Origin: Alicycliphilus denitrificans K601 | GTDB taxonomy: Bacteria > Pseudomonadota > Gammaproteobacteria > Burkholderiales > Burkholderiaceae_C | Length of the DNA: 64,000 bases | Reading direction: 5' to 3' | Assembly: GCF_000204645.1 (NCBI RefSeq) | Contig: NC_015422.1 | Location: 4,913,001-4,977,000, forward strand | Shown: positions 10,698 to 62,273 of the stretch, piece after piece | Position numbering within the stretch: position 1 is the stretch's first letter | Layout of the letters: the number at the start of each line of letters is the position of its first letter | Notes under the pieces: model-generated | Told to the model about the DNA's origin: nothing | Seen by the model: the letters and a program-made list of their open reading frames with translations, nothing else | Database searches by the model: none | Position numbers and translations under genes: made by a program

Positions 10698-10749
10698 TTA
10701 TTCGATAGCTGGAAACGCCTGTCCGTAAAGGGCTGAAGGCCGATTTGGC
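10698..10749 (+). repeat. Dispersed palindromic repeat, copy 1 (diverged)
   Basis: A diverged copy of the family consensus (left arm ATAGCTGCCAGCGCTT, right arm AAGCGCTGGAGGCCGATTT). Here the arms read ATAGCTGGAAACGCCT and AAAGGGCTGAAGGCCGATTT, so pairing is weaker but both flanking blocks are intact. It lies in the 137-base gap between two minus-strand genes, a gap that otherwise shows nothing I can identify. Confidence 0.7.
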
Positions 10750-10784
10750 TCCATCACTCCTCGACCGCATCGTGCATGGCCGCG

Positions 10785-12452
10785 CTACCCCGCCGCCGCC
10801 AGCCCCGCCGCATGCCCGCGCGTGAAGGCTTCCTCGAACACCGAGTAGCCCGACCAGTCGGCGTGCGCGAACAGCAGGCGCGCGGTGCCGGGCGTGGGCG
10901 GCAGCGGCACACGCTCTCCATTCGATAGCTGCCAGCGCTTTCCTGGCGGGCACTGGAGGCCGATTTTGCTTAAAAACCCCAGCGTGCCCGGCACGGGGAT
11001 GGACATGGCGTGCCCGTAGCGCGTGACCTGCATGCGCGTGGCGCGCCCGACCAAGTCGGGGTGGGGCACGGCGAGCGCGGCGAGGATGGCGTCGCGCCAG
11101 TGTGTCCAGGGCCGCTCGGCGAGTTGCGCGCGGCCATCGGGCAGGTCGCCCAGAGCCTGGTAGTAGCTCAGCACGGTGGGCCCGGCGAGCAACGCGCCGG
11201 GGTCGAGCCGCTGGTGGCCCGCATCCACGTAGCCCAGGCCGCCTGGCACGGGGTCTGAATAGAGCACGTTGTCCCACGCGGGCGCGGCGCCCTCGCGGTC
11301 GGCCAGGGGCACGCCGATGCGGAGGTTGGCGACCAGCCAGGGCGCCCACTGCAGGCGGCGTGCGGCCTCTTGCACGAAGGCGGGCGCGGGCTGCACCACG
11401 CGCGCGGCGACGAACGCGGGCAGCGCGACGATGCAGCGATCGGCCTGCCAGCGCTCGATGCGGCCGCTGGCGTGGTCGAGCGCATCGACTTCCACGCCAT
11501 GGCGCGTCTCGGCGATGCGCAGCACACCGGTGCCGCAGCGCACCTGGCCCGCGCCCAGCGCGGCCAGGCGCCGCGCGAGCCAGCCGTTGCCCTCGGGCCA
11601 GGTGAGCACGCCTTCGCGCTCGGCGCCCTCGTCGTCGCCGGGCGCGTGGAAGCCGTGGCGGCTCGCGAAGTAGTGGATGCCCGCCCAGGCACAGACGCGC
11701 GCGCTGCCGGCGCCGTAGTCGTCGCGGCAGCAGTAGTCCAGGTACCAGCGCAGGTAGGCGTCATCGAGCCCCTCGCGCGCCAGCCAATCATCCAAAGTAA
11801 TAGCATCCAGCGCTTGATGAATGGGCGCTGGAGGCCGATTTGGCATCCATGCCTTGAGCGCGGGCATGGTGAACGGCGCGACGCGCGCGAGTTCATCAAC
11901 ACGCCTGGAGAAACGCCGATACTGCGCCAACGTGGACTCGCCCACGCCCTGCACGGGCAGCAGCCCTTCCTGCCAGTGGCCGTGCAGGAACAAGCGCTCC
12001 TGCGGGCTGTGGCACAGGTGGCGCCCATCATCCCCCCCGTACTGCCAGCGGCCGGCCACTCGGCGGCGCAGGCCCAGTTCTTCGAGCAGGTCCTGCACTT
12101 CGCCCGCATGATCGCCGGGCACGGGCAGGTAGTGCGCGCCCAGCGGGCAGGCGATGCCGCCCACGCTGCCCGCGCGGCTGTTGCCGCCGGGCTCGTCCTC
12201 CAGCTCCAGCAGCACGCCATCGTGAACGCCCGCGAGCCGCAGCGCGCGCGCCGCGGCCAGCCCGGCGATGCCGCCGCCCGCGATCACCACGCGGGTGCGG
12301 TGCGTCACGGCGGGCGCGGCGCCTTCGAGCCGGTCGCGCAGCGCATGGCCGCGGTCCATGGCGATGCCGGTGAAGCCGCCTTCGAGCCCGGGCGTCTGCG
12401 GCGCGCAGCCCGCCAGCGCGAGGGGCGCGGCCAGGAAGGTGCGGCGGTCCAT
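10785..12452 (-). CDS. Tat-type FAD/NAD(P)-dependent oxidoreductase (amine-oxidase-like flavoprotein)
   Basis: A 555-residue flavoprotein. The N-terminus MDRRTFLAAPLALAGC has a twin-arginine motif and a lipobox-like LAGC, suggesting folded Tat export and perhaps lipid anchoring. The dinucleotide-binding motif VVIAGGGIAGLAAARAL starts near residue 54 and is followed by an acidic ELEDEPGGNSR. The C-terminal part has LLFAHADWSGYSVFEEAFTRGHAAGLAAA, the FAD-closing segment of amine-oxidase-like proteins. Its ATG overlaps the stop of the spermidine-synthase-like gene (ATGA), so the pair is coupled. Two copies of the dispersed repeat lie in frame, encoding LSKIGLQCPPGKRWQLSNGE and PIHQALDAI-containing stretches. 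Oxidation of a polyamine-derived product is a plausible but unproven role. Confidence 0.85.
   Translation of the reverse strand: MDRRTFLAAPLALAGCAPQTPGLEGGFTGIAMDRGHALRDRLEGAAPAVTHRTRVVIAGGGIAGLAAARALRLAGVHDGVLLELEDEPGGNSRAGSVGGIACPLGAHYLPVPGDHAGEVQDLLEELGLRRRVAGRWQYGGDDGRHLCHSPQERLFLHGHWQEGLLPVQGVGESTLAQYRRFSRRVDELARVAPFTMPALKAWMPNRPPAPIHQALDAITLDDWLAREGLDDAYLRWYLDYCCRDDYGAGSARVCAWAGIHYFASRHGFHAPGDDEGAEREGVLTWPEGNGWLARRLAALGAGQVRCGTGVLRIAETRHGVEVDALDHASGRIERWQADRCIVALPAFVAARVVQPAPAFVQEAARRLQWAPWLVANLRIGVPLADREGAAPAWDNVLYSDPVPGGLGYVDAGHQRLDPGALLAGPTVLSYYQALGDLPDGRAQLAERPWTHWRDAILAALAVPHPDLVGRATRMQVTRYGHAMSIPVPGTLGFLSKIGLQCPPGKRWQLSNGERVPLPPTPGTARLLFAHADWSGYSVFEEAFTRGHAAGLAAAG
10918..10971 (+). 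repeat. Dispersed palindromic repeat, copy 2, inside the flavoprotein gene
   Basis: Reads ATAGCTGCCAGCGCTT, then a short spacer, then GCACTGGAGGCCGATTTTG. It is a good match to the family, in an open frame of the minus-strand flavoprotein near its C-terminus, where it encodes about 18 residues (KIGLQCPPGKRWQLSNGE) without a stop or frameshift. Confidence 0.85.
11795..11845 (+). repeat. Dispersed palindromic repeat, copy 3, inside the flavoprotein gene
   Basis: Reads AATAGCATCCAGCGCTTGA, spacer, GGGCGCTGGAGGCCGATTT. It is the second copy in the same coding sequence, also read through in frame, encoding PNRPPAPIHQALDAIT in the middle of the protein. Confidence 0.82.
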
Positions 12453-14005
12453 CAGTGCGCCACCACCGCGCCCCATTCCTGCTCGTAGGTGTGCACCAGC
12501 ACCTGGTTGGACAGGCGGTTCACCTCGGCGGGCACGCGCGCCATGTCCAGCGGAAAGTCGAGCAGCAGCGGCAGCGACTTCAGGTCCAGAAAGCGCAGCC
12601 CCCCGGGCAGGGCGGCGGGCAGGCGCCAGGGCCGGCGGCTGGCGATGACGAAACCCCACTCGCCGAAACTGGGCACGTGGGCATGGTAGGGCGTGGCCGC
12701 CAGGCCCACGGACTCGATGGTCGCCACCACCGTCCAGAAGCTCTTGCGCGCCACCAGCGGCGAGGTGGTCTGCACCACGGCGTAGCCGCTGGCCGCCAGG
12801 CGCTGGTCCAGCAGCGCGTAGAAGCTGTTGGTGTAGAGCTTGCCGATGGCGAAGTTGGTGGGGTCGGGAAAGTCGACCACGATCACGTCGTAGCTGCCCT
12901 CGTCCTGCTGCAGCCACTGGAAGGCATCGGTGTTCACGACGCGCACCTTGGGGTTGGCGAGCGCGCCGCCGTTCAGGCGCCGCAGCGCGGGGTCCTGGGT
13001 GAACAGGCGCGTCATGGCCGGGTCCAGCTCCACCAGCGTGACCGATTCGACCGAGGGGTACTTGAGAATCTCGCGTACCGCCATGCCGTCGCCGCCGCCG
13101 AGCACCGCCACGCGCCGGGGCGCGCCGTGCGCGGCCATGGCGGGGTGGACGAGCGCCTCGTGGTAGCGGTATTCGTCGCGCTCGGCGAACTGCAGGTTGC
13201 CGTTGAGGTACAGGCGGTGCCCCTGCCGCCCGTTGGTGACCACGATGCGCTGGTAGGGCGACGCGGCGCTGATCACGATGCGGTCCTGGTAGAACTTGTC
13301 CTCCGCGAAACGCGTGATGTGCTCGGCCCCCAGCAGCCCCGCGAGCAGCGCGCCCACCACCGCCGCGCAGGCCACGGCATGCGCGCGAAAGCGCCGCAGC
13401 TCACGGCGGAACAGCCACAGCGCCCACACGGCCACGGCCGCGTTCATGAAGCCGAACAAGAGGCCCGTGCGGACCAGCCCGAGCTGCGGCACGAGCAGCA
13501 GCGGAAACGCGAGCGACACCGCCAGCGCACCGAGGTAGTCGAAGGTGAGCACCTGCGACACCAGGTCCTTGAGCCGCACGTTGCGCTTCAAGATGCGCAT
13601 GACCAGCGGGATCTCCAGGCCGACGAGCGTGCCCACGAGCAGCACCATGCCGTACAGCAGCACGCGGAACGCCCCCGGCGCGTAGGCGTTCGCGAGGAAC
13701 AGCACGGCCGGCAGCGCCCCGCCGACGAGGGCCACGAGTAGCTCAATGCGCAGGAAATGCGCGGGCAGCTGCCGCTCGAAGTAGCGCGACAGCCACGATC
13801 CCACGCCCATGGCGAACAGGTAGGTGCCGATGACGGTGGAGAACTGCAGCACCGAGTCGCCCAGCACGTACGATGCGAGCGCGCCCGCCGCGAGTTCGTA
13901 GAGCAGCCCGCAGGCGGCGATGACGAAGACGCTGGCGAGCAGGGCGATGTCGGTGGGGCGCGGGGCAGGCGGGGCGGCGCCCGCCGCTTCGGGTGCGGCG
14001 CTCAT
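12452..14005 (-). CDS. Membrane-anchored spermidine/spermine-synthase-like protein
   Basis: A 517-residue protein with about six or seven N-terminal transmembrane helices (residues ~20-230, e.g. IALLASVFVIAACGLLYELAAGALA and VLLYGMVLLVGTLVGLEIP) and a C-terminal SpeE-like domain. The domain has LYLNGNLQFAERDEYRYHEALVHP, the AdoMet-type motif VLGGGDGMAVREIL near residue 303, VELDP and VVDFPDPTN. Aminopropyltransferases move an aminopropyl group from decarboxylated AdoMet to putrescine; the substrate of membrane-bound forms is not certain. ATG 14005 is chosen because the longer frame overlaps DUF350. It follows the DUF350 gene by 13 bases and is coupled to the flavoprotein, consistent with one operon from the SPFH gene downwards. 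Confidence 0.88.
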   Translation of the reverse strand: MSAAPEAAGAAPPAPRPTDIALLASVFVIAACGLLYELAAGALASYVLGDSVLQFSTVIGTYLFAMGVGSWLSRYFERQLPAHFLRIELLVALVGGALPAVLFLANAYAPGAFRVLLYGMVLLVGTLVGLEIPLVMRILKRNVRLKDLVSQVLTFDYLGALAVSLAFPLLLVPQLGLVRTGLLFGFMNAAVAVWALWLFRRELRRFRAHAVACAAVVGALLAGLLGAEHITRFAEDKFYQDRIVISAASPYQRIVVTNGRQGHRLYLNGNLQFAERDEYRYHEALVHPAMAAHGAPRRVAVLGGGDGMAVREILKYPSVESVTLVELDPAMTRLFTQDPALRRLNGGALANPKVRVVNTDAFQWLQQDEGSYDVIVVDFPDPTNFAIGKLYTNSFYALLDQRLAASGYAVVQTTSPLVARKSFWTVVATIESVGLAATPYHAHVPSFGEWGFVIASRRPWRLPAALPGGLRFLDLKSLPLLLDFPLDMARVPAEVNRLSNQVLVHTYEQEWGAVVAH

Positions 14006-14018
14006 GCGCGCGGGCCGG

Positions 14019-14240
14019 TCAATGGATCGCCGCCGCCACGATGATGCTGATGCCCAGGCACATGGCTGCCACCACCAGTGCCAGCGCACGGTTCTGCTTC
14101 TCGACTATCTCGGCCCACAGGTCGTAAGGCGTGATCTTGTCGACGATGAGAAAGCACAGCCAGAAGACGACAACGCCGATCAGCGCGTAGAGGATGGACC
14201 CGAGGAAAGCCGCGGGCCGGAGCCATTCGATTCCCATCAT
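14019..14240 (-). CDS. DUF350-family small membrane protein (YjfL-like)
   Basis: A 73-residue protein made almost entirely of two transmembrane helices: FLGSILYALIGVVVFWLCFLIVDKITPYDLW and ALALVVAAMCLGISIIVAAAI. The KITPYDLW...KQNRALA loop is typical of DUF350, the family that includes YjfL. A strong aaggag lies 7-8 bases before the ATG. Genes of this family are often found next to DUF4178, SPFH/Band-7 and spermidine-synthase-like genes, as here; the biochemical role is unknown. It lies between DUF4178 upstream and the spermidine-synthase-like gene downstream on the same strand. Confidence 0.85.
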   Translation of the reverse strand: MMGIEWLRPAAFLGSILYALIGVVVFWLCFLIVDKITPYDLWAEIVEKQNRALALVVAAMCLGISIIVAAAIH

Positions 14241-14276
14241 GGCGTTTGCTCCTTGTGAAGGTGGTTCTTGGTCATG

Positions 14277-15761
14277 TCACTTGTGCCCGCCGCCCGAGGT
14301 GTAGCCGCCGAACGAGCCGCCCGAGCTGCGGTAGCCGCCGCCCGACGAGCCCGCGCAGTTGCTCATGAGCACCAGCAGGACCAGCAGCACGACGGCGGCG
14401 AGTATCAGCGTGCTGCAGCCTATGCCCGGGTTGCCGGCCACGGGGCCCGCGTCCTGGCGGCGGAACAGGGCGGCCTTGTCGCCGAGGCGGAAGGCCTGGG
14501 CGACGGCGCTGCTGTCGATGCGCTCGCCGTGCGACCAGGTGACCTCGCCGCGCGACTGCTCGCGCGAGAGGAGGCCCCTACCGCCGGTGGCGGCGAAGTC
14601 GGCGTTGCTGGTCTTCTGGCCGCGTTCGACGGGCCAGTAGAACTCGCCGAGCACGTAGTCGGTTTCGGCCGTGTAGGTGGACGCGAGGCGGTACTGCGTA
14701 CCCAGGTAGCTCGCGGTCTGCGCGCCGTTCTTGTACTGGGGCGCGCCGGTGGCGGGGCGCACCAGGCTCCAGCCGTCGCTCGCGTCCACGAGGAAAACGA
14801 AGCCGCGCCGGGCGTTGTAGAGCAGGTATTCGTCCCAGCCGAATTCCTCGTCGTCGCCCGGCTCGCGCCCCATGCGGTGCTGGAAGCCCACGGCCTGCCA
14901 CGACGCGCCCTCGAACTGGCCCACACTCCCCAACGGGATCAGCGGCGCGACCGGCTCGTGCTGCACGGCGTGGCGCAGCTCGCCGCCCACGCCGGCGCTC
15001 AGGTCTATGAGGCTGTTGCACGCGGGACAGGTGCAACTCTTGGTGGTGGCCAGCTGCACCTGCACGGGCGCGCCGCAGTGGGGGCAGTTGAACTGGCGGC
15101 CCTTCTCCTCCCTGGCCGATTCGTCCTTCAGGCCCTGCATCTGCAGGTCTTCCAGGCGCACGGCGCGGCCGCGCTGTACCTGGGGCGGGCTGCTCCCGTA
15201 GTCGATGGCGAGCACCTCGCCGTCGCCGCTGCGCAGCTCGACCACCTGGAAGGGCTGGCCCGGCGGCGGCAGCCGGGGCAGCTCGCCTTCGGCCGCGACG
15301 AGCTGCGCGCGCAGGTTGGCCGCCACGCTGAAGGGCTTGCCGTCCACGGCCGTGGTAGCGCCCACGCGCAGCCGCGCGGCGTCCGGCGGCTCGCGGCCCA
15401 GCGCGGCAGGGCGCATGAAGACGTAGGCGCCGTTGTCCTCGCTCAGCGTGGCGGTGCTGCCGTCCTGCAGCCAGGCGATCCACTCGGTCCAGCCGCCCTC
15501 GTCGCCCTTGTATTGCAGGCGGCCGATGAGGGTGAAGGGCTGGCCTTCGAACCTGCCGCTGGCCATGAGCCGCAGCGGGCTGTGGTCGTCGAAGACCTCC
15601 GCCATCCTGCCCGCGCGCCGCAGCACCTCGCCGCTGCGCACCACGGTGCTGTGGCAGTAGGAGCAGACGGCGTGGGTGGACTGCGCGCTCCTGAACTCGA
15701 CGGGTGCGCCGCAGCCGGGGCAGGGCGCGCGGTAGTGGCGCTGGGTGCCGCTTTCGGCCAT
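14277..15761 (-). CDS. DUF4178 protein with two zinc ribbons and a C-terminal membrane anchor
   Basis: A 494-residue protein. An N-terminal zinc ribbon uses Cys14, Cys17, Cys33 and Cys36 (CPGCGAP...CSYC). A DUF4178-like beta domain follows (FTLIGRLQYKGDEGGWTEWIAWLQDG). A second zinc ribbon (CPHCGAP...CPAC, about residues 225-250) and a second DUF4178 copy (WQAVGFQHRMG...WDEYLLYNARRGFVFLVDASDGW) come next. One transmembrane helix lies near 450-470 (STLILAAVVLLVLLVLMSNC), and the tail is Gly/Ser-rich (SSGGGYRSSGGS). The domain repeat suggests a bivalent scaffold at the membrane. It sits between the SPFH-SHOCT and DUF350 genes. Function unknown. Confidence 0.85.
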   Translation of the reverse strand: MAESGTQRHYRAPCPGCGAPVEFRSAQSTHAVCSYCHSTVVRSGEVLRRAGRMAEVFDDHSPLRLMASGRFEGQPFTLIGRLQYKGDEGGWTEWIAWLQDGSTATLSEDNGAYVFMRPAALGREPPDAARLRVGATTAVDGKPFSVAANLRAQLVAAEGELPRLPPPGQPFQVVELRSGDGEVLAIDYGSSPPQVQRGRAVRLEDLQMQGLKDESAREEKGRQFNCPHCGAPVQVQLATTKSCTCPACNSLIDLSAGVGGELRHAVQHEPVAPLIPLGSVGQFEGASWQAVGFQHRMGREPGDDEEFGWDEYLLYNARRGFVFLVDASDGWSLVRPATGAPQYKNGAQTASYLGTQYRLASTYTAETDYVLGEFYWPVERGQKTSNADFAATGGRGLLSREQSRGEVTWSHGERIDSSAVAQAFRLGDKAALFRRQDAGPVAGNPGIGCSTLILAAVVLLVLLVLMSNCAGSSGGGYRSSGGSFGGYTSGGGHK

Positions 15762-15775
15762 TGGATGTTTTGGGT

Positions 15776-15822
15776 GTTTTTGGCCTCCAGCGCTTATCCC
15801 TCAAACGCTGGCAGCTACGAAA
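15776..15822 (-). repeat. Dispersed palindromic repeat, copy 4
   Basis: On the minus strand it reads from TAGCTGCCAGCGTTTGA to AAGCGCTGGAGGCCAAAAA. It fills most of the 68-base space between the SPFH-SHOCT gene and the DUF4178 gene, so any transcript linking the two must pass through the hairpin. Confidence 0.85.
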
Positions 15823-15829
15823 ACGATAG

Positions 15830-16867
15830 TCAGACGAGTTTCTTGAGCAGCTCGGTCTTCTTGGCGTCGAACTCTTCCTGCGTGAGGATGCCCTTGGCCT
15901 TGAGGTCGGCCAGCTTCTCCAGCGTGGCCATCACCTCCTCGGGCCTCACGCCCACGGCGGCTGCGGCGGGCGCCGCCTGCGCGCCGCCGCCCTGCAGGCC
16001 CTGCTGCAGGTTCTGCGCCAGCACCTGGCCCAGCGCCACGCCGGCGCCCAGGCCCATGGCGTCGCCCGCCACGCCGCCACCTTGGGCCCCGCCTTCGGCG
16101 AACTTCGGGATGGCCTGCGCCGTCTGGTACTGCATGAAGCGGCCCATGTCGCCCCCGACCATGCCCATGCCGATCTTCTGGTCGAGCACCTTCTGCAGTT
16201 CCTCGGGCAGCGAGACGTTCTGCACCGTGATGGTTTCGAGCTTCAGGCCGATGCGGGCGAACGCGGGCGCGAGCTCCCTGGCGAGCGCGTCGGCGAACAT
16301 GGCCTGGTTGGCCGCCAGGTCCAGGAAAGGCACGCCGCTGGCCGCGATGGCGTTGCTGATGTTCTGCAGCACCAGGCCGCGCAGCTGGCCGTCCAGGTCA
16401 GCGGCCGGGTACGCGTCGCGCGTGCCCGAGATCTCGGTGTGGAACAGCTTGGGATCGGCCACGCGGTAGGCGTAGTTGCCGAAGGCGCGCAGGCGCACGG
16501 CGCCGAAGTCCTTGTCGCGGATGGCGATGGGCTGGGGCGTGCCCCACTTCTGGTCCACCTGCTGGCGCGTGCTGAAGAAATACACGTCGCTCTTGAACGG
16601 GGACTCGAACAGCTTGTCCCAGTGCTTCAGGTAGGTCAGCACGGGCAGCGTCTGCGTGGTGAGCCTGTAGGTGCCGGGGCCAAACACGTCGGCCGCCTGG
16701 CCCTCGTTGACGAACACGGCCATCTGCGACTCGCGCACCACCAGCGTGGCGCCGTTCTGGATCTCCATGTCCCGCATCGGAAAGCGCCAGGCCAGCGTGC
16801 CGTCGCCCTCTTCCGTCCACTGGATGATGTCGATGAACTGCTTCTTGATGAAGTCCATGAGGGCCAT
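15830..16867 (-). CDS. SPFH (Band 7) domain protein with C-terminal SHOCT domain
   Basis: A 345-residue cytoplasmic SPFH protein of the YdjI/virion-core-like type. It starts MALMDFIKKQFIDIIQW, followed by VVRESQMAVFVNEGQAADVFGPGTYRL and FGNYAYRVADPKLF, the SPFH core. A Gly/Gln-rich linker near 270-310 (QNLQQGLQGGG) leads to a SHOCT-type helical hairpin at the end (EEVMATLEKLADLKAKGILTQEEFDAKKTELLKKL). No transmembrane segment is visible. The ATG at 16867 has gggag upstream; the longer frame to 16978 lacks support. It is the first gene of the minus-strand membrane cluster. SPFH proteins organise membrane microdomains or stress assemblies; the exact role here is inferred. Confidence 0.88.
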   Translation of the reverse strand: MALMDFIKKQFIDIIQWTEEGDGTLAWRFPMRDMEIQNGATLVVRESQMAVFVNEGQAADVFGPGTYRLTTQTLPVLTYLKHWDKLFESPFKSDVYFFSTRQQVDQKWGTPQPIAIRDKDFGAVRLRAFGNYAYRVADPKLFHTEISGTRDAYPAADLDGQLRGLVLQNISNAIAASGVPFLDLAANQAMFADALARELAPAFARIGLKLETITVQNVSLPEELQKVLDQKIGMGMVGGDMGRFMQYQTAQAIPKFAEGGAQGGGVAGDAMGLGAGVALGQVLAQNLQQGLQGGGAQAAPAAAAVGVRPEEVMATLEKLADLKAKGILTQEEFDAKKTELLKKLV

Positions 16868-16989
16868 ACGCGTGCTCCCGTCGGGCGGAAAAGGTGGAGG
16901 GAAAAGGGAAGCAGCCATCATAGCGAGCGGCGGCATGCGCGGGCGCCCTGCCGCTATCGCGGAGGTAGGAACGATCAATTGGAGAATTT

Positions 16990-17010
16990 AAATGAGAATA
17001 AATATCATTT
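16990..17010 (+). promoter_or_regulatory. Fur-box-like inverted repeat
   Basis: An AT-rich imperfect palindrome, AAATGAGAAT followed by AAATATCATTT, 26 bases before the DUF2061 start. It resembles the proteobacterial Fur consensus (GATAATGATAATCATTATC) and the betaproteobacterial form with AATGAGAAT half-sites. In this GC-rich window such a stretch is conspicuous. Iron control of the DUF2061 gene is therefore likely, but it is a prediction. Confidence 0.5.
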
Positions 17011-17035
17011 AATGAGCCTATCCGAGGAGCCCGCC

Positions 17036-17344
17036 ATGTCCCGCATCCGCACCGTCGCCCGCCACAACCTGCCCGCGCTGATGAAGACCGGCAGCTACTA
17101 CGTGATCCACGTCTGCGTGGCCGCCCTGGTGGCCTACGCCGTCACGGGCAACCTGATCGCCTCGCTCACGCTGAGCCTGCTGGAGCCCACGGTTCAGGCC
17201 GTGGCGTTCTTCTTCCACGAGAAGGCGTGGGAGCGCGCGCTGCGCAAGCGCGGGGCCGCCGCCGCTCAGGCACACACGTCGAGCAAGGAGCCAGCCATCT
17301 CGTCGGCCGTGCGCAGCACCAGCAGGCTGGCCTTGAAGGCGTAA
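17036..17344 (+). CDS. DUF2061-family membrane protein
   Basis: A 102-residue protein with the DUF2061 core: ALMKTGSYYVIHVCVAALVAYAVTGNLIASLTLSLLEPTVQAVAFFFHEKAWERAL. It has two hydrophobic segments joined by a short loop and the conserved FHEKAW. A clear gaggag lies 7 bases before the ATG. The Fur-box-like site upstream suggests iron-responsive expression. The last ~26 codons run antisense to the end of the convergent flagellar-rod-like gene and have no family similarity. They may be a recent extension after loss of an earlier stop. Function of the family is unknown. Confidence 0.82.
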   Translation: MSRIRTVARHNLPALMKTGSYYVIHVCVAALVAYAVTGNLIASLTLSLLEPTVQAVAFFFHEKAWERALRKRGAAAAQAHTSSKEPAISSAVRSTSRLALKA

Positions 17345-17589
17345 GTGGCCGCCATCTGCTCCACGGCCTCGGCCTCCAGGGCGACGCCGGGCTGCCCGAA
17401 CCGCCCCGTCCGCGCCTGCACGCCGCCCTGGGCGGGCGCGGCCTGTTGGTCCACCGCCTGGCGCGCGAAGCCCGGCGTGCCCAGGTTGGCGACGTTGTGG
17501 GCGCTGCTGTCCAGCCGCAGCTGCGCGGCCTGGAGGCCGGATCGGGCGATGGAGGCGAGCGGGGTCATGGTGCCCATGGTATCGGCCAT
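17266..17589 (-). CDS. Orphan flagellar basal-body-rod-like protein
   Basis: A 107-residue protein carrying only the two ends of a flagellar rod protein. The N-terminal rod motif is LASIARSGLQAAQLRLDSSAHNVANLGTPGFARQ, and the C-terminal helix AEAVEQMAATYAFKASLLVLRTADEMAGSLLDV is FlgC-like. True FlgB/FlgC are longer (about 130-150 residues) and lie in fla operons; no other flagellar gene is near. The start may be 17589 or one of the inner Met codons (MGTM). It overlaps the DUF2061 gene antisense by 79 bases. It may be an accessory rod-like protein or a relic. Confidence 0.75.
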   Translation of the reverse strand: MADTMGTMTPLASIARSGLQAAQLRLDSSAHNVANLGTPGFARQAVDQQAAPAQGGVQARTGRFGQPGVALEAEAVEQMAATYAFKASLLVLRTADEMAGSLLDVCA

Positions 17590-17617
17590 TCACGCCGGCA
17601 CTTGAGCGGCGCTTTGT

Positions 17618-17668
17618 TTTCGATAGCTGTCAGCGCTTGACTGGCAAGCGCTAAAGCCCGTTTTGATG
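17618..17668 (+). repeat. Dispersed palindromic repeat, copy 5, overlapping a LysR stop codon
   Basis: Reads ATAGCTGTCAGCGCTTGAC, then GGCAAGCGCTAAAGCCCGTTTTG. Its right part encodes the last residues (QNGL) and the TAG stop of the minus-strand LysR gene, so the C-terminus of that protein was set by the repeat. Confidence 0.85.
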
Positions 17669-18595
17669 CGCATCCAGCAGGCAGCGCCCGAACAGCTGCG
17701 CCGCGCGGCTGGGCTCGGGCGAGCGGCGCGCCAGGCTCACGAAGCGGCAGTCGTAGCGGAACAGGTCGGGCCGCACGGCGCGCATGCGGCCCTGGCGCTC
17801 GAAGCCCTCGGCATAGTGGTCGGGCAGGAAGCCCAGGAAGCGGCCCGACAGCACCAGCGTGGCGATGGACTCCTGGTCGAACCCCGTGGCGCTGCGCGTC
17901 AGGCGCGCCTCGTGGCTCAGCTCCATGTTGGGCGAGTGGTAGCCCAGGCCCGCGAAGGGGTAGGCGCGCACGGCGTCCCAGTCCAGCGCGTCGTGGGGCG
18001 CATCGAACAGCGCATGGCCCGCGCCGCAGTACAGCAGCATGGCCTCGCCGAACAGGTCGGTGTAGACCAGGCTCTGCGAGCTGCGGTGCGCGGGGATGAT
18101 GCCCGCCTGGTAGCTGCCGTCGATCACCCCGCGCTCGATGGCGTTGATGCTGGCCACGTGCAGCTGCAACTGCACGTCCGGCGCTTGCGCGGTGAAGGCG
18201 GCGATCGCCTGGTGGATACGCGCGGCCGGGTTGCTGGCGGTCTTATCGAACACCGCCACGGCCAGCTGCCCGCCCATGCGCGCGTGGATGTCGTCGATGC
18301 TGCCCAGGAACCCCCGCACCGAGGCCAACAGGCGCAGCGTCTCCTCGTACACGCGCTGCCCCTCGGGCGTGAGCGCGAAGCCCGCGCGCCCGCGCCGGCA
18401 CAGCGTGAGGCCCAGGCGCGTCTCCAGGTCCTTCACATGGCGGCTCACGGTGCTGGTGCCGATGTTCAGTTCCAGCTCGGCCGCGGCCATGCCGCCGCAC
18501 TCGACCACGGCCTTGAAGACCTGCAGCAGGCGCAGGTCCATGTCGGAGAGCTGGCCCAGCACGGCGCGCTGGCGGGGGGCGGTTTTTACTTGCAT
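17651..18595 (-). CDS. LysR-family regulator, probably of the bauA-mmsA operon
   Basis: A 314-residue LysR regulator. The helix-turn-helix is in LSDMDLRLLQVFKAVVECGGMAAAELELNIGTSTVSRHVKDLETRLGLTLCRRGRAGFALTPEG and is followed by the effector domain. ATG 18595 (MQVKTAPRQ) is preferred over the longer frame to 18802, which would run into the aminotransferase gene. It is divergent from bauA, with 91 bases between the starts, the standard LysR arrangement, so it probably activates the beta-alanine genes. The last four residues and stop lie in a dispersed repeat. Confidence 0.92.
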   Translation of the reverse strand: MQVKTAPRQRAVLGQLSDMDLRLLQVFKAVVECGGMAAAELELNIGTSTVSRHVKDLETRLGLTLCRRGRAGFALTPEGQRVYEETLRLLASVRGFLGSIDDIHARMGGQLAVAVFDKTASNPAARIHQAIAAFTAQAPDVQLQLHVASINAIERGVIDGSYQAGIIPAHRSSQSLVYTDLFGEAMLLYCGAGHALFDAPHDALDWDAVRAYPFAGLGYHSPNMELSHEARLTRSATGFDQESIATLVLSGRFLGFLPDHYAEGFERQGRMRAVRPDLFRYDCRFVSLARRSPEPSRAAQLFGRCLLDAHQNGL

Positions 18596-18686
18596 GAACT
18601 GGCAAGTGAACGTGGATATTTGTTGCTTCAAGAGATTATGGCCGCTGCCAACAATCGCGCATTCCCTCTTGCTCAAGGAGACCGCC

Positions 18687-20042: not shown

Positions 20043-20049
20043 CAATCAT

Positions 20050-20105
20050 TTTTTGATAGCTGCTGACGCTTGCTGGGCAAGCGCCAGGGGCGTCTTTTGC
20101 TTGAA
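20050..20105 (+). repeat. Dispersed palindromic repeat, copy 6, between bauA and mmsA
   Basis: Reads ATAGCTGCTGACGCTTGCTG, then GGCAAGCGCCAGGGGCGTCTTTTG. It occupies nearly all of the 69-base gap between two co-directional genes and ends a few bases before the mmsA ATG, so it lies where a ribosome-binding site would be expected. Confidence 0.85.
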
Positions 20106-20111
20106 ATCACC

Positions 20112-25133: not shown

Positions 25134-25167
25134 CCCCCTGCCGCCCAGAGCGTCCCGGAACCGCCGT

Positions 25168-40951: not shown

Positions 40952-40962
40952 TTCTACAAGAG

Positions 40963-41012
40963 AAATCGGCCTCCAGCGCTTGCTGGTCAAGCACTGGCAG
41001 CTACTTTTTTTG
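40963..41012 (-). repeat. Dispersed palindromic repeat, copy 7, between amgK and rsmE
   Basis: On the plus strand: ATCGGCCTCCAGCGCTTGCT, then TCAAGCACTGGCAGCTACTTTTTTT. The hairpin followed by seven T could act as a terminator for amgK. Its end is only 6-7 bases from the rsmE start, so it replaces the usual ribosome-site region. Confidence 0.85.
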
Positions 41013-43066: not shown

Positions 43067-43763
43067 CGCCGCCCTGCTGATCGCCGAACTGCTCACGCGC
43101 CGCTGGCTGCCGCGCAGCCACCGCCTGGTCAAGCGCGCGCTGGTCGACGCCGAGCTGTTCGCGCAGGTCGAGCAGCGCCTGGCCCAGAGCGGCCTGCGCT
43201 GGATGGACAGCATCTACGCCGACCACGTGAGCGTGGCCCTGCTGCCCGCCGCCGCCGCCACCGTGCTCGGCGAGGCGGGCGCCAACGCCAACAACAACCT
43301 CGACCTGCCGCGCGACGCGCAGGCGCTGCTCGTGGTGCTGTGGGCGCTGATCGTGCTGCCCAAGCGCGAGCGCCAGACCAGCCGCACCCTGGATGCCGAC
43401 GCGGGCCAGGACGACCTCTTCCCCGGCGCCAAGCCTTTGCCCTCGGCGCGCAGCGCAAGCCCCGTGCTCTCGTACAAGGCGCTGCTGGAGGACTACGGCC
43501 CGCAGCTCGGCAAGAAGCTGCGGCTGGACGCCAACCTCAAGCTGCTGGAGCGCCACGGCTTCATCCTGCGCCGCCAGGACGAGATCGCCGAGGGGCCGCT
43601 GCTGGACGTGCTGCTGGACTACGACGTGCTCGCCCCGCGCATCCTCGACGGCGCGCTGGCCGACGTGCTGGCGCGCGAGCGGGCGGTGGAAGAAGAATCC
43701 GAATCAAATCAAGCTCCAGCGCCCTCCAGTCAAGCGCTGGCAGCTATTAATACAGAAGCATAA
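43059..43763 (+). CDS. Small winged-helix (MksE/KITE-like) subunit of the condensin-type operon
   Basis: A 234-residue protein. It starts MDDAALLIAELLTRRWLPRSHRLVKRALVD and has two predicted helix-rich parts, including ALLVVLWALIVLPKRE and LSYKALLEDYGPQLGKKLRLDANLKLLERHGFILRRQDEIAEGPLLDVLLDYD. The second looks like a winged helix and fits the MksE/JetB type of KITE subunit that binds the kleisin. A gaagga site precedes the ATG. The last ~22 residues (SNQAPAPSSQALAAINTEA) are encoded by a dispersed repeat and are probably not part of the ancestral protein. The next gene starts with GTG immediately after its stop. Confidence 0.58.
   Translation: MDDAALLIAELLTRRWLPRSHRLVKRALVDAELFAQVEQRLAQSGLRWMDSIYADHVSVALLPAAAATVLGEAGANANNNLDLPRDAQALLVVLWALIVLPKRERQTSRTLDADAGQDDLFPGAKPLPSARSASPVLSYKALLEDYGPQLGKKLRLDANLKLLERHGFILRRQDEIAEGPLLDVLLDYDVLAPRILDGALADVLARERAVEEESESNQAPAPSSQALAAINTEA
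43703..43752 (-). repeat. Dispersed palindromic repeat, copy 8, forming a protein C-terminus
   Basis: On the plus strand: AATCAAGCTCCAGCGCCCTC, then CAAGCGCTGGCAGCTATTAAT. It lies in frame at the end of the small condensin subunit and 12 bases before the GTG start of the SMC gene, so it both extends one protein and occupies the translation-start region of the next. Confidence 0.82.
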
Positions 43764-46601: not shown

Positions 46602-46622
46602 GCCTGGGTTCTTTGCGCTCCC

Positions 46623-46673
46623 CAAAAAAGAGCTGCCAGCGCTTTAACAGCAAGCGCTGGAGGCCAAAAACCT
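46623..46673 (+). repeat. Dispersed palindromic repeat, copy 9, between convergent genes
   Basis: Reads AGCTGCCAGCGCTTTAAC, then GCAAGCGCTGGAGGCCAAAAA. On the minus strand the 9-bp stem is followed by CAGCTCTTTTTTGG, so it should work as a terminator for the M20 peptidase gene, whose stop lies one base away. Confidence 0.88.
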
Positions 46674-48137
46674 TCAAACCGGCATCGCGGCGATCACCTG
46701 GGCCACGGCCGCGGTGAGACGCTTGGCGTAGGGCACGTGCAGGAATTCGTTGGGACCGTGGGCGTTGCTCTTGGGGCCGAGCACGCCGCAGACCATCATC
46801 TGCGCGCTGGGGAAGCCCTGGCTCAGCATGTTCATGAGCGGGATGGTGCCGCCCTGGCCGATGTAGCCGCAGGGCGCGCCGAAGTGCGCCTGGCTGGCTG
46901 CGTCCAGGGCCTGGGCGAACCAGGGGTCGATGGCCGGGGCGTTCCAGCCGCTGGCGGCGTGGTCGGGCGCGAAGGTCACGCGCGCCTGGTAGGGCGCGTT
47001 GTCCTCCAGCAGGGCCTTGAGCTCCTGCGCGCTGGCGACGGCGTCCACCAGCGGCGGCAGGCGCAGGCTGAGCTTGAAGGCGGTGTAGGGGCGCAGCACG
47101 TTGCCCGCGTCCTTCAGGGCCGGGAAGCCCTCGGCGCCGGTGACGGACAGCGTGGGTTCCCAGGTGCGCCTGAGCAGCGCCTGCACCGGGTCGGTGGTGG
47201 TGGGCAGGGCGAACACCGTGCTGCCGCCGCAGTCATGGTGCGCCCAGGGGAAGCGCTTGTAGACCTCCTCGCCCAGGATGGCGGCGGTGGCCTTTGCCTG
47301 CGCGAGGCGGTCGGCGGGCACCTCGCAGTGGAAGCTGGCGGGCAGCAGGCGCCCGGTGGCCGAGTCCTCCAGCCGGTCGAGCACCTGGCGCATGATGCGG
47401 AACGACGAGGGCACGAGGCCCGAGGAGTCGCCCGAGTGCACGCCCTCGGTGAGGATCTCGACCTTGAGCGTGCCGCTGGCCATGCCGCGCAGGCTGGTGG
47501 TGAGCCAGAGCTGGTCGTAGTTGCCCGCGCCCGAGTCCAGGCAGATGACCAGGCCCACGTCGCCCAGACGTTCGCGCAGCGCGTCGATGTAGGGCAGCAG
47601 GTCGGCCGAGCCGCTTTCCTCGCAGGTCTCGACCAGGCCCACGATGCGCGGGTGCGCCACGCCCTGGCGCTTCAGTTCCTGCACGGCGGCGATGCTGGCG
47701 TAGACGGCATAGCCGTCGTCCGCGCCGCCGCGGCCGTAGAGTTTGCCGTCCTCATACTTGGGCGTCCACGGGCCCAGGTCGGCGCGCCAGCCCTCGAACT
47801 CGGGCTGCTTGTCCAGGTGGCCGTACATCAGGACGGTCTGCGCCAATTGCGGCTGCGTGGCCGCCACCTCGAAGAACAGCACGGGCGTGCGGCCGGGCAG
47901 GCGCACGATCTCGAGCGTGAGGCCCGCGACCTTCTGCGCCTCGACCCACTGCGCGGCGTTGCGCACCACCGTCTCGATGTGGCCCAGCTCGCGCCAGTCG
48001 GGCGCGAAGCCGGGCGACTTGGCGGGAATGCGGATGTAGTCGGTGAGCTGCTGCAGTATGTCTTCGTCCCACGCGCGGCTCACGCGGTCGAGCGCGAGCG
48101 CGGCGTCCAGGGCGGCGGAGGGCAGGCGTGCGGTCAT
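46674..48137 (-). CDS. M20-family metallopeptidase (dipeptidase-like)
   Basis: A 487-residue zinc peptidase of the M20 family, CNDP-like. Metal and catalytic motifs are VLMYGHLDKQPEFEGW (His and Asp), YGRGGADDGYAVYAS, ETCEESGSADLL (general base and ligand Glu), LDSGAGNYDQLWLTTSLRG and the C-terminal HGPNEFLHV. The inner dimerisation domain has EILTEGVHSGDSSGLVPSSFRIMRQVLDRLED. Probably cytoplasmic, cleaving dipeptides. The ATG at 48137 is chosen over a longer frame to 48257. It stands alone, followed by a repeat-based terminator and convergent with the SMC gene. Confidence 0.93.
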   Translation of the reverse strand: MTARLPSAALDAALALDRVSRAWDEDILQQLTDYIRIPAKSPGFAPDWRELGHIETVVRNAAQWVEAQKVAGLTLEIVRLPGRTPVLFFEVAATQPQLAQTVLMYGHLDKQPEFEGWRADLGPWTPKYEDGKLYGRGGADDGYAVYASIAAVQELKRQGVAHPRIVGLVETCEESGSADLLPYIDALRERLGDVGLVICLDSGAGNYDQLWLTTSLRGMASGTLKVEILTEGVHSGDSSGLVPSSFRIMRQVLDRLEDSATGRLLPASFHCEVPADRLAQAKATAAILGEEVYKRFPWAHHDCGGSTVFALPTTTDPVQALLRRTWEPTLSVTGAEGFPALKDAGNVLRPYTAFKLSLRLPPLVDAVASAQELKALLEDNAPYQARVTFAPDHAASGWNAPAIDPWFAQALDAASQAHFGAPCGYIGQGGTIPLMNMLSQGFPSAQMMVCGVLGPKSNAHGPNEFLHVPYAKRLTAAVAQVIAAMPV

Positions 48138-49398: not shown

Positions 49399-49548
49399 GG
49401 CGCGGAGAAAAACGGGTGGTGTGGGCGGGAAGCCTGCGGGCAACGCGTGCCGCAGCGATCCACGCCTGCGGCAGGCCGTCGCTGTCGAGGGCAACCTGTA
49501 ATTGTTACATTTTTCGCCGCCGACGCGCGAGCCCATGCACCGGTCAGC

Positions 49549-49596
49549 ATTTTGAACCTCCAGCGCTTTATGGGAAAGCGCTGGTAGCTATTTTTT
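49549..49596 (-). repeat. Dispersed palindromic repeat, copy 10, downstream of metW
   Basis: On the plus strand: GAACCTCCAGCGCTTTATG, then GAAAGCGCTGGTAGCTATTTTTT. It lies in the 209-base gap between the cyclase start and the metW stop. The rest of that gap shows no gene; part of it must hold the cyclase promoter. Confidence 0.87.
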
Positions 49597-49607
49597 ACAT
49601 AGCATCA

Positions 49608-52888: not shown

Positions 52889-52922
52889 GCGACCGCCAAG
52901 CCACAAGATCACGGAAAACCCC

Positions 52923-52953
52923 TTGCATTTTCGCCAAGGTTCTAACGCATAAT
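52923..52953 (+). promoter_or_regulatory. Possible promoter of the second RRM gene
   Basis: TTGCAT (52923-52928) and CATAAT (52948-52953), spacer 19, follow the terminator of the first RRM gene. A leader of about 130 bases would result. The two leaders share little except the ribosome site (aggagtcc). Confidence 0.35.
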
Positions 52954-53087
52954 GTTCCGGCGATGGGGGTTGCCCCGTCGGTGTTGCGGTGATCCATCAG
53001 TTTTCGCGCATAGGGCGTCTTAGTGATTAACTGGCTGCGGGTTCGGGACTCCGTCGCTCAATTCAATTGTTTTTCAGGAGTCCCTTG

Positions 53088-60793: not shown

Positions 60794-60875
60794 CGGGCGC
60801 GAACGGTAGCGTGCGCACCGCATCCATACAAGCGGCCATTACCATTGTTTACACATGCATTGCCTTGTCGCTACC

Positions 60876-62273
60876 TCATTTTCCGATGCAGAAGCTGGAG
60901 AAGATGACACCCAGCAGATCGTCGGAGGTGAATTCGCCCGTGATGGCGTTGAGGGCGTTCTGCGCCAGGCGTAGTTCCTCGGCCAGCAGGTCCAGCGCCG
61001 GCCCCGTGCTTTCGAGCTGCGCGGCGGCCTCCATGAGGTGCGCGTCCACGGCGCGCAGGGCCTCGATGTGGCGCGCGCGGGCGATGTACACGCCCTCGGC
61101 TGCGGACTGCCAGCCCGCGACCCGCAGCAGTTCCCGCCGCAGGGCGTCGAGCCCCTGGCCGGTGCGCGCCGACAGTTGCACCGCCGCCCGGCCCGCCGTG
61201 GCGGCCGGTGCCGGGCGGGCAGCGGCGTCGGTCTTGTTCCAGACGTCGATGACCGGCACGCTTTCAGACAGTTTCTGGACCAGGGTGCTTGCTATGAGCG
61301 CGTCGGCAGCTATGTATTCGGGAGCATCCAGGCGCGTGAGGTCGTGCAGGAACAGCACGGCATCGGCCTGGGTGATCTCGTCCCAGGCGCGCGCGATGCC
61401 GATGCGCTCGACCTCGTCGGCGCTTTCGCGCAGGCCAGCCGTGTCGATGATGTGCAGCGGAACGCCCTCGATCTGTATGGTCTGCTGAACCTTGTCGCGC
61501 GTGGTGCCCGCGATGGGGGTGACGATGGCCAGCTCCGCCCCGGCGAGCGCATTGAGCAGCGAGCTCTTGCCCGCGTTCGGCTGGCCCGCGATGACCACCT
61601 TGATGCCTTCGCGCAGCAGCGCGCCCTGGCTGGCGCGCTGCATCACGGCGGCCAGCGTCTGCTGCAGGTTCGATAGCTGCCCGCGCGCGTCTGCCTTGCG
61701 CAGGAAGTCGATTTCCTCCTCTGGGAAGTCGAGCGTGGCCTCGACCAGCATGCGCAGGTGCACGAGCGCGTCGCGCAGGCCGTGGATCTCCTGCGAGAAC
61801 GCGCCCGACAGCGACCGGCCCGCGCTGCGCGCCGCGGCCTCGGTGCTGGCGTCTATCAGGTCGGCGATGGCCTCGGCCTGGGCCAGGTCGAGCTTGTCGT
61901 TGAGGAAGGCGCGCTCGGTGAATTCGCCCGGCTCGGCCAGGCGCAGGCGCGGCAGCACGGCTTGCGCCGCCTCCAGGCAGCGCGCCAGCAACAGCTGCAG
62001 CACCACGGGGCCACCGTGGGCCTGCAGCTCCAGCACGTCCTCGCCCGTGTAGCTGTGCGGCGCGGGGAAGAACAGCGCCAAGCCCTGGTCGATGGACCGG
62101 CCCGCGGCATCGGGAAAGGGCAGGTAATGCGCCTGGCGGGGCTGCAGCGATCTCCCGAGCAGGCCCTGCACGAAGGGCGCGAGCCCCCGGCCCGACACGC
62201 GCACGATGCCCACGGCCCCGCGCCCGGGGGCGGTGGCGATGGCAGCGATGGGGTCCTGGTGGCGGGCGAGCAT
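60876..62273 (-). CDS. mnmE: tRNA modification GTPase MnmE
   Basis: A 465-residue MnmE/TrmE. The N-terminal folate-binding domain has [22 protein letters not shown] and [19 protein letters not shown]. The helical domain bears the G domain: G1 [15 protein letters not shown]2 PIAGTTRD, G3 DTAGLRES, G4 NKTD. The C-terminal motif FSSFCIGK holds the conserved Cys. With MnmG it modifies the wobble uridine of several tRNAs. A degenerate repeat copy may lie in frame in the G domain near [19 protein letters not shown]. Confidence 0.96.
61280..61320 (-). repeat. Degenerate dispersed repeat, copy 12, inside mnmE
   Basis: On the minus strand: ACATAGCTGCCGACGCGCTC, then ATAGCAAGCACCCTGG. The flank ATAGCTGCC and part of the right arm survive. 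It coincides with a stretch of MnmE that looks longer and less conserved than usual. Tentative. Confidence 0.35.

What the first reader, a model, noticed from the sequence alone, without database searches (positions are those of the whole stretch)
10698..61320. One dispersed palindromic repeat family occurs at least ten times in 64 kb
The same 45-55 bp element (flank ATAGCTG, stem CCAGCGCTT/AAGCGCTGG, flank GGCC[G/A]ATTT) is found at 10698, 10918, 11795, 15776, 17618, 20050, 40963, 43703, 46623 and 49549, with weaker copies at 54229 and 61280. Both orientations occur. Conserved flanks outside the stem, and spacers of varying sequence, suggest a mobile REP/MITE-like element rather than simple terminators. 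No transposase lies in the window, so a RAYT-type or other enzyme elsewhere would have to move it. Whether the family has been described I cannot tell.
Basis: seen in the sequence. Interest (0 to 1): 0.78.

Follow-up and report, generated by a model that had tools for sequence, protein, structure and literature searches.

The report
Orphan REP-like hairpin repeat, Comamonadaceae
A short hairpin-forming DNA repeat is scattered through this bacterium and its relatives, mostly at the ends of genes, and is built like the known REP elements, but no enzyme that would spread it was found to go with it.

Summary
A covariance model built from the ten strong copies finds those ten and no others in the window; the two 'weaker copies' are not recovered. 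The window's genome has the size of Alicycliphilus denitrificans K601T and 150 scored copies, the scorer's cap. The family is patchy: 54 of 250 genomes of its GTDB family.

The unit is about 62 bp with sharp edges and REP-type anatomy: CT, then ATAG (not GTAG), a 10-bp hairpin with a conserved G·A mismatch below it, then CT. It sits at gene 3' ends, with none of 73 home copies between divergent genes; some are read in frame inside proteins.

No cognate enzyme was found: the home Y1 transposase has unrelated 26-bp terminal repeats, and 18 such loci in element-rich genomes show no enrichment of the element. Seven of eight readable window sites are shared with relatives; one is lacking in five relatives, and one relatives' site is lacking in the window.

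Unexpected: loops occur in both orientations (23 reverse-complement pairs, 3.2 expected), suggesting spacer inversion. I call it an orphan REP-like family.

The parts
10697..10755 (+). element copy, intergenic, degenerate hairpin
   Evidence: R1 57.3 bits; no orthologous junction recovered
10917..10975 (+). element copy inside ORF 10785-12452 (-); opposite strand reads FLSKIGLQCPPGKRWQLSNGE
   Evidence: R1 68.5 bits; recognised at the same place in 3 of 5 relatives; peptide region
11792..11850 (+). element copy inside the same ORF; opposite strand reads AWMPNRPPAPIHQALDAITLDD
   Evidence: R1 60.9 bits; match at the same place in 5 of 5 relatives at 6-10 mismatches, the one in G002 called on the other strand
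15768..15826 (-). element copy between two co-directional genes, beside the upstream stop codon
   Evidence: R1 57 bits; present in 5 of 6 relatives, below cut-off in the sixth
17615..17673 (+). element copy, not found in any of five relatives
   Evidence: R1 62.1 bits; junctions of 58-77 bp in G015, G004, G005, longer and rearranged in G003, G002
20048..20106 (+). element copy filling the gap between an aminotransferase (ends 20042) and an aldehyde dehydrogenase (starts 20112)
   Evidence: R1 58.9 bits; present in 3 of 3 relatives; Pfam
40954..41012 (-). element copy between two co-directional genes; loop apparently inverted relative to relatives
   Evidence: R1 62.4 bits; present in 3 of 4 relatives; loops
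43697..43755 (-). element copy overlapping the last codons of gene 43059-43763
   Evidence: R1 62 bits; present in 2 of 2 relatives, one at 10 mismatches
46621..46679 (+). element copy between convergent genes
   Evidence: R1 59.5 bits; junction rearranged in relatives
49548..49599 (-). element copy just after the metW-like gene (49608-50192, -)
   Evidence: R1 50.2 bits; present in G015, absent in G003, G004, G005; Pfam MetW
25134..25167 (.). junction without the element in the window; G015, G003, G004 and G002 have it here (82-83 bp junctions), G005 does not
10785..12452 (-). FAD-dependent amine-oxidase-like gene carrying two element copies in frame
   Evidence: PF01593 3.4e-18; gene; homologues

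Best explanation
It is a REP-like, non-autonomous palindromic element of Comamonadaceae whose spreading enzyme is missing or unrecognised. SHOWN: a ~62-bp unit with sharp ends; CT at -11, ATAG tetranucleotide, a 10-bp stem with a 5-nt loop and a conserved G·A mismatch near the foot, CT at +44; both orientations; 150 or more copies; placement at gene 3' ends; some copies read in frame inside proteins; most readable window sites shared across species, some differing. INFERRED: copies were made by a single-strand (HUH/Y1) transposase of the TnpAREP type that folds one strand, recognises tag plus hairpin and cuts at the flanking CTs. Insertions persisted where they did no harm, that is after stop codons, in tolerant linkers and in gene-less integron cassettes. 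The family is now mostly inherited. Resident hairpins are then altered by replication template switching, which inverts the loop.
For: Sharp unit over 73 copies. CT at -11 in 71% of 72 home and 82% of 182 other copies, at +44 in 58% and 49%, background 5%; ATAG in 54 and GTAG in 6 of 72. TnpAREP is reported to cut single-stranded REP at a CT 5' or 3' of the hairpin, with GTAG, stem irregularities and strand specificity (PMC8266576, passages). G·U exceeds A·C on the element strand (74:24 in 72 home copies, 182:73 in 254), and the bias does not differ significantly between sense and antisense copies (Fisher p=1.0 home, 0.35 all), as expected for recognition of one DNA strand. Patchy: 54 of 250 family genomes; 0 of 16 genomes of other families; exact core in 103 stretches of GTDB genomes, the 80 listed titles all Comamonadaceae genera or metagenome bins with broader names. 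Presence/absence between species at 17615 and 25133-25167. Placement matches known REPs, which lie downstream of genes, between unidirectional or convergent ORFs, and sometimes inside genes (PMC3733652, passages).
Against: No enzyme goes with the element: home Y1 gene; 18 Y1 loci in element-rich genomes with 3 matches at <=9 mismatches in 81 kb, no more than chance; of 30 NF047646 loci returned (of 162 genomes with a match) none at <=9 mismatches, but only three of those come from element-rich genomes, and one of the three (L279, G093) has a degenerate element-like match at 10 mismatches about 300 bp from the gene. The tag is ATAG, not GTAG. No clean target-site duplication or insertion in progress was seen; most readable sites are old. 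At 25133-25167 the window's junction is about 49 bp shorter and also differs in sequence, so it reads as loss with change rather than a clean empty site. The missing 57 bp in one integron cassette keeps the sequence corresponding to the left edge, so it reads as deletion as easily as insertion. Three genomes rich in the element lack any NF047646 match at E<=1e-12.
Confidence: 0.6

Rival explanations
1. It is kept for a job in mRNA: a gene-end hairpin that stabilises transcripts, causes pausing or termination, or separates genes of an operon.
For: Hugs stop codons: 36 of 48 co-directional copies have an edge within -16..+12 of the upstream stop, and 15 of 19 with >=40 bp of residual spacing lie nearer the stop than the next start (p=0.019); 0 of 68 divergent against 8 of 54 window junctions (p=0.001). 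Arms stay paired in 93.4% of cells, with 12 double-changed cells against 4.3 shuffled. In pairs 7-13 the G·U:A·C ratio leans with gene direction (36:17 sense, 24:25 antisense, p=0.07). 5 of 10 window copies overlap a terminator-like call, and region 39000-51500 has 12 such calls against 4.1 shuffled (region 9500-21500 has 4 against 4.4). Orthologous copies keep paired arms while the loop changes.
Against: Home co-directional copies lie equally in both orientations (24:24), so the mRNA carries either strand; the overall wobble bias follows the element strand; 2 of the 5 terminator-like calls point against both neighbours; 8 of 182 copies in other genomes are called divergent; most sampled genera lack it (37 of 141 have a match).
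Confidence: 0.2
2. It is a MITE of some other transposon (DDE or serine enzyme), not of a Y1 enzyme.
For: Abundant, small, dispersed, no coding capacity of its own; no Y1 enzyme is seen to go with it.
Against: The two ends of the unit are not inverted repeats of each other (logo) and no target-site duplication was seen; the conserved CT pair, tag and mismatch fit single-strand transposition better. No search for other transposase classes was made.
Confidence: 0.1
3. The Y1 protein present in many of these genomes (TIR-flanked TIRYT, NF047646-like) moves the element in trans.
For: 30 of 33 genomes with >=11 scored copies have an NF047646 match against 132 of 217 others (p=0.0006); in G015 a copy lies about 75 bp before this gene, and in G093 a degenerate one about 300 bp from it.
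Against: Its own ends are unrelated 26-bp TIRs; Y1 genes occur in genomes without the element; the association is not corrected for kinship; three element-rich genomes lack a match; the G015 copy simply follows the stop codon of the preceding gene.
Confidence: 0.1

Closest known systems
GTAG-tagged REPs of RAYT/TnpAREP (PMC3733652, PMC8266576, PMC2817692; passages seen)
   Same: Tetranucleotide at the hairpin foot, imperfect palindrome with conserved mismatch, CT on both sides, high copy number, placement downstream of genes, intragenic copies, G·T pairing in stems
   Different: Tag is ATAG in 54 of 72 home copies (GTAG in 6); no RAYT seen flanked by it; the high-scoring RAYT loci whose repeats I looked at (L256, L257, L259, L262) carry other repeats (CGTAGGTTGGCGGTGAGC..., GTAGGTCGGGTTAGC...)
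CGTC-tagged REPs (PMC3733652, passages)
   Same: REP-like hairpins without a dedicated transposase; 8-9 bp stems and 4-5 nt loops; intragenic units
   Different: No CGTC tag
Rickettsia palindromic elements, RPE (PMC10969869 and PMC3733652, passages)
   Same: Palindromic element read in frame inside unrelated proteins
   Different: The passages give RPEs of about 150 bp with 44 in genes of R. conorii; here only 5 of 73 home copies are called intragenic, one of them the weak 61674 match
Beta-proteobacterial repeat element, BRE (PMC3110155, section 14 read)
   Same: Dispersed repeat in Betaproteobacteria including Comamonadaceae
   Different: 75-91 bp in Bordetella, sometimes tandem, at most 29 copies; its sequence is not in the section read, so identity could not be tested
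TIRYT/TIRtron (PMC3733652, passages)
   Same: Present in the same genome
   Different: Its 26-bp TIR TTAATTGGGGTCGGATTCCAATTAAA is unrelated to the element

Membership tests
REP in the broad sense | Short palindrome, abundant, mostly extragenic, downstream of genes | tested here: met
   >=150 copies; 48 co-directional, 20 convergent, 0 divergent, 5 intragenic of 73
GTAG REP (TnpAREP substrate) | GTAG at the foot of the hairpin | tested here: not met
   ATAG 54, AGAG 7, GTAG 6 of 72 home copies; ATAG 141, GTAG 17 of 182 others
GTAG REP (TnpAREP substrate) | CT dinucleotide 5' and 3' of the hairpin | tested here: met
   71-82% at -11, 49-58% at +44, background 5%
GTAG REP (TnpAREP substrate) | Conserved irregularity in the stem | tested here: met
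   G6·A32 in 190 of 254 copies
GTAG REP (TnpAREP substrate) | Cognate RAYT gene flanked by the repeat | tested here: not met
   Home Y1 gene; 18 Y1 loci in element-rich genomes at chance level, one adjacency in G015 behind the preceding gene's stop; a true REPtron in an unsampled genome is not excluded
GTAG REP (TnpAREP substrate) | Single strand bound and cut by the enzyme | not testable with these tools
   needs biochemistry
CGTC REP | CGTC tag | tested here: not met
   logo and tetranucleotide counts
Intrinsic terminator | GC-rich hairpin followed by a T run in the direction of the gene | tested here: not met
   5 of 10 window copies called terminator-like, 2 of the 5 antisense to both genes
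BRE (Bordetella) | Sequence match to BRE | not testable with these tools
   sequence absent from the section read
Integron attC | R''/R' cores GTTRRRY and RYYYAAC around the palindrome (recalled) | tested here: not met
   attC-like sites lie beside the element in L239 but are a separate repeat
Rfam families | Score above gathering threshold | tested here: not met
   0 matches in the window

The most novel reading that the evidence does not exclude
The hairpin is kept in shape but its loop is turned round in place again and again by replication template switching, so that across the population loop orientation is largely uncoupled from the asymmetric flanks. A REP-like family would then be a natural recorder of template-switch events, and part of the 'compensatory' pairing in REPs generally could come from mutation rather than from selection on RNA. 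Support: reverse-complement loop pairs are as common as identical pairs (23 vs 22 in 72 home copies; 233 vs 243 in 254), against 3.2 and 22.9 in column shuffles, with 0 reversed and 0-1 complement pairs; at two orthologous sites the loop appears inverted between species. Limits: orientation is not equal (TGG:CCA 36:16 home, 98:64 all), repair of the 6/32 mismatch shows no excess (30 vs 28 shuffled), and the eight G003/G006 pairs that can be scored show no inversion.
Probability: 0.35. Interest if true: 0.66.

Novelty: new member of a known kind. Interest (0 to 1): 0.45.

Why it matters
If right, Comamonadaceae carry a REP-like family that I could not find named in nine literature searches (listed in Tried and rejected), with a changed tag and no recognisable enzyme. 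That makes a test case for how such families outlive their transposase. The loop-inversion signal, if it holds in other REP families, would make template switching at resident hairpins countable from genome sequence alone, and would weaken the habit of reading paired changes in REP stems as proof of RNA function. Practically, the element explains some in-frame inserts and many gene-end hairpins in these genomes.

Tried and rejected
RAYT link: looked for in the home genome, in relatives and in 250 family genomes; no gene goes with the element. Limit: the 30 loci returned are the best-scoring ones, and only three (G020, G141, G093) come from element-rich genomes. Simple terminators: weak. Rfam: none. 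BRE: could not be compared by sequence. attC identity: rejected, since attC-like sites are present as separate repeats. Whole-element insertion in the integron cassette: not decided, since the gap keeps the left edge. Repair of the G·A mismatch as further proof of template switching: no excess. Strain-level empty sites: G003 and G006 are 97-100% identical over the loci matched, but I only matched copies against copies. Of 20 places fetched from each, nine pair up and so carry the element in both by construction; the other 11 of each were not looked up in the other genome, so this pair says nothing about recent movement. A 'clean' empty site at 17615: the short junctions in G015, G004 and G005 lack the element, but their flanks match only partly, and G015 has a copy some 350 bp away where the window has none. 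Literature: nine searches of an open-access library only; no supplements.

Gene calls are my own codon-usage caller trained on the window, not a standard annotation; starts are less certain than stops, and codon bias of other genomes was not modelled. The printed junction list was cut in the middle. Home copies were scored from 59 fetched contexts plus the window, chosen from the top of the 150 listed, so weaker copies are under-represented; of 76 places at <=10 mismatches, three at exactly 10 were dropped (73 kept; reversed-sequence control 3 and 1), and 72 at <=8 entered the pair and loop counts. Alignment A3 (77 rows) includes five second or partial hits on copies already counted and is fitted to the model's structure; only the double-changed cells clearly exceed the shuffles, while pairs changed on both sides (4 against 3.0) and further pair types do not.

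Full report
WHAT WAS CHECKED. A covariance model built from them (R1) returns exactly these ten in the window at E<=1e-6. The bare hairpin pattern with up to three mismatches gives 16 matches (8 places on both strands) against 0.79 expected. No Rfam family matches.

WHERE IT LIES. The assembly has 5,070,751 bases with a chromosome of 4,995,263, the sizes printed for Alicycliphilus denitrificans K601T (PMC3692508, passages). R1 scores 150 places in it, the cap of the scorer, so the true number may be higher. In a sample of 250 genomes of the GTDB family, 54 have a match at E<=1e-10, in 37 of 141 genera (at most 22 places were scored per genome, with stricter filters). An exact core pattern occurs in 103 stretches of the whole GTDB genome collection; 80 are listed, and their titles are Acidovorax, Paracidovorax, Paenacidovorax, Simplicispira, Diaphorobacter, Giesbergeria, Ottowia, Comamonas, Ramlibacter, or metagenome bins named no further than Burkholderiaceae, Burkholderiales or Pseudomonadota/Proteobacteria. 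The window's own or very near records may be left out of that list.

ANATOMY. I fetched 59 contexts of further home copies. Over 73 copies the conserved unit runs from about -12 to +50 relative to the T of TAGCTG and falls to background on both sides. Reading the element strand: CT at -11; an A/T-rich stretch; the tetranucleotide ATAG at 0-3 (54 of 72; GTAG 6); arms CCAGCGCTTG and CAAGCGCTGG around a 5-nt loop; a conserved G6·A32 mismatch (190 of 254 copies); three more pairs at the foot; GGCC; [G/A]ATTT; and CT at +44. CT at -11 is present in 71% of 72 home and 82% of 182 other copies, CT at +44 in 58% and 49%, background 5%. The published substrate of TnpAREP is described with the same parts: a GTAG tag, an irregular hairpin, strand-specific binding of single-stranded REP and cleavage at a CT 5' or 3' of it (PMC8266576, passages). 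This is a resemblance of anatomy; membership fails on the tag and on the missing enzyme.

PLACEMENT. With my own gene caller, 48 of 73 home copies lie between co-directional genes, 20 between convergent genes, 5 inside genes and none between divergent genes; divergent junctions make 8 of 54 in the window (0 of 68 against 8 of 54, p=0.001). In other genomes the caller gives 112 co-directional, 39 convergent, 20 inside, 8 divergent and 3 at an edge, of 182. Among home co-directional copies, element sense and antisense are 24:24. Edges hug the upstream stop codon in 36 of 48, and 15 of 19 with room to spare lie nearer the stop than the next start (p=0.019). The same placement is reported for GTAG and CGTC REPs (PMC3733652, passages), so it is not peculiar to this family.

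INSIDE GENES. Window copies 10917 and 11792 lie in an FAD-dependent amine-oxidase-like gene (PF01593) and are read on the opposite strand as FLSKIGLQCPPGKRWQLSNGE and AWMPNRPPAPIHQALDAITLDD. In 34 homologues taken from the 120 listed, the corresponding stretches align without a gap, mostly similar, with a few strongly changed (for example P0012 at the C-terminal one). These are therefore old insertions or old coding sequence; homologues from outside the family were not examined, so the direction is inferred. Similar in-frame copies lie in a DnaE-like, a PurK-like and a kinase-like reading frame of fetched loci (these gene names are my reading of the translations, not a search). In PurK and DnaE the element-coded part replaces a stretch that, as I recall these families, is of similar length, so a plain insertion is not shown there.

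OLD OR MOVING. Orthologous junctions from G015 (whose fetched contig has the length of Diaphorobacter nitroreducens RJVL01000002.1), G002, G003, G004, G005 and G009 were read for the ten sites, counting matches at <=10 mismatches. One site (10697) gave no ortholog and one (46618) is rearranged. Of the other eight, 10917 is recognised in 3 of 5, 11792 in 5 of 5, 15775 in 5 of 6, 20048 in 3 of 3, 40962 in 3 of 4, 43704 in 2 of 2, 49548 in 1 of 4 and 17615 in 0 of 5. At 17615 three relatives have a junction of 58-77 bp where the window has the element between CACTTGA and ATGCGCATC; G005 reads GCACTTGAATGCGCC there; G003 and G002 have longer, rearranged junctions. Conversely, at window 25133-25167 the home junction is 34 bp without the element, while G015, G003, G004 and G002 have it in junctions of 82-83 bp and G005 does not; loss in the home lineage is the simplest reading. 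G015 also has a copy at the junction matching window 17238-17266, where the window has none. The family is therefore mostly inherited, with gain or loss between species. Two genomes 97-100% identical over nine matched loci (G003, G006) share those nine copies, but only because copies were matched to copies; the other 11 of 20 in each were not looked up. In a G003 integron array, eight copies sit in gene-less cassettes in one orientation, and one closely similar cassette lacks a 57-bp segment covering the hairpin. The gap leaves the left edge in place, so it may be a deletion.

THE ENZYME. The home genome has one Y1 transposase, scoring just over the REP-associated tyrosine transposase cut-off (80.2 against 80 bits). 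It is flanked by a 26-bp inverted repeat, 96% complementary, unrelated to the element, which is the arrangement called TIRYT in PMC3733652 (passages). Scans of 20 Y1 loci from relatives found no match with fewer than 9 mismatches. Of 12 further Y1 stretches of about 5-8 kb, four hold a match at <=9 mismatches, one beside the gene (G015, where it follows the preceding gene's stop) and three some 1.4-2.4 kb away. Taking the 18 Y1 loci from element-rich genomes together (81 kb), 3 matches at <=9 mismatches are found, against 2.4 expected from one copy per 34 kb: no enrichment. In 250 family genomes, 162 have an NF047646 match at E<=1e-12 and 73 are over its cut-off. Of the 30 loci returned none holds the element at <=9 mismatches and two match at 10, one of which (L279, G093) looks like a degenerate copy about 300 bp from the gene. 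Only three of the 30 come from element-rich genomes. High-scoring RAYTs inspected here carry their own repeats of other sequence. Eleven genomes in the listing have a match above 130 bits; two of them are rich in the element and nine have none. NF047646 is commoner in element-rich genomes (30 of 33 against 132 of 217, p=0.0006, not corrected for kinship), but three element-rich genomes lack it.

WHICH STRAND. If the hairpin served in mRNA, wobble pairs should be favoured on whichever strand the gene transcribes. On the element strand G·U exceeds A·C both in copies sense to the gene (30:11 home, 71:26 all) and antisense (25:10 home, 65:33 all); the difference is not significant (p=1.0 and 0.35). 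Restricting to pairs 7-13 leaves 36:17 against 24:25 (p=0.07), so some mRNA effect is not excluded. Copies are not independent, and a GG sub-family (positions 23-24) carries much of the excess.

THE LOOP. Across 72 home copies the 7-nt loops form 22 identical pairs and 23 reverse-complement pairs, but 0 reversed and 0 complement pairs; 200 column shuffles give 3.2 reverse-complement pairs on average (maximum 11). In 254 copies the numbers are 243, 233, 0 and 1, with 22.9 expected (maximum 38). Loops thus occur in both orientations relative to the asymmetric flanks. At 40962 the home loop GACCAGC resembles the reverse complement of G015 GGTGGAC (5 of 7) rather than the direct form (2 of 7), and at 20048 home GCTGGGC and G003 ACCAGAT share CTGG/CCAG in opposite orientation (short strings, read by eye, others of the five sites are undecided). 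Template switching between arms of inverted repeats is reported to invert spacers and even out arms (PMC8604942, start of abstract in the listings; PMC8794818, passages). Pair changes fit weakly: 12 double-changed cells against 4.3 shuffled, while the numbers of such pairs and of pair types are not exceptional, and there is no excess repair of the 6/32 mismatch. Orientation is biased (TGG:CCA 36:16 home, 98:64 all), so equilibrium is not reached or not neutral. Two founder sub-families with opposite loops would explain the pair counts too, but not the orthologous sites.

WHAT IT IS. I file it as a new REP-like family in the broad sense, not as a GTAG REP. Works like: a TnpAREP substrate (inferred from anatomy). 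Is a member of: palindromic extragenic repeats. I found no description of it in nine searches of an open-access library. The two REP surveys opened have no hit for the Comamonadaceae names I tried in the main text (PMC12306157; PMC3733652). Subscription papers and supplements were not searched.

Noticed in passing
L239 (G003:C1:3764500-3777000), 1908-8534: Integron cassette array with about eleven attC-like 60-nt repeats; ORFs score as OXA-46-like class D beta-lactamase (3011-3811), AAC(6')-Ib (6263-6817) and AadA (1908-2780). Eight element copies lie in gene-less cassettes of the array. Described only.
   Followed up: partly
L021 2433-3302 (home C1:849 kb): Y1 transposase with a 26-bp inverted repeat at both ends (TIRYT type), upstream of what looks like gltB (my reading, not searched); similar TIR-like motifs flank the Y1 gene in several relatives.
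   Followed up: partly
L256, L257, L259: High-scoring RAYT genes in this family with their own GTAG-type repeats (CGTAGGTTGGCGGTGAGC..., GTAGGTCGGGTTAGCGCAGC...), different from the element.
   Followed up: partly
   Followed up: no
window 52473-53358: Two 300-nt direct repeats, 81% identical, 586 bp apart, with glycine-rich low-complexity ends.
   Followed up: no
   Followed up: no
L249 4742: Element copy in G002 with cassette-like flank GCGCAGCGCTGCAAAAAC, like the L239 cassettes, about 2.3 kb from a Y1 gene.
   Followed up: no
G003 and G006: Two genomes held as different species are 97-100% identical over the nine matched loci.
   Followed up: no
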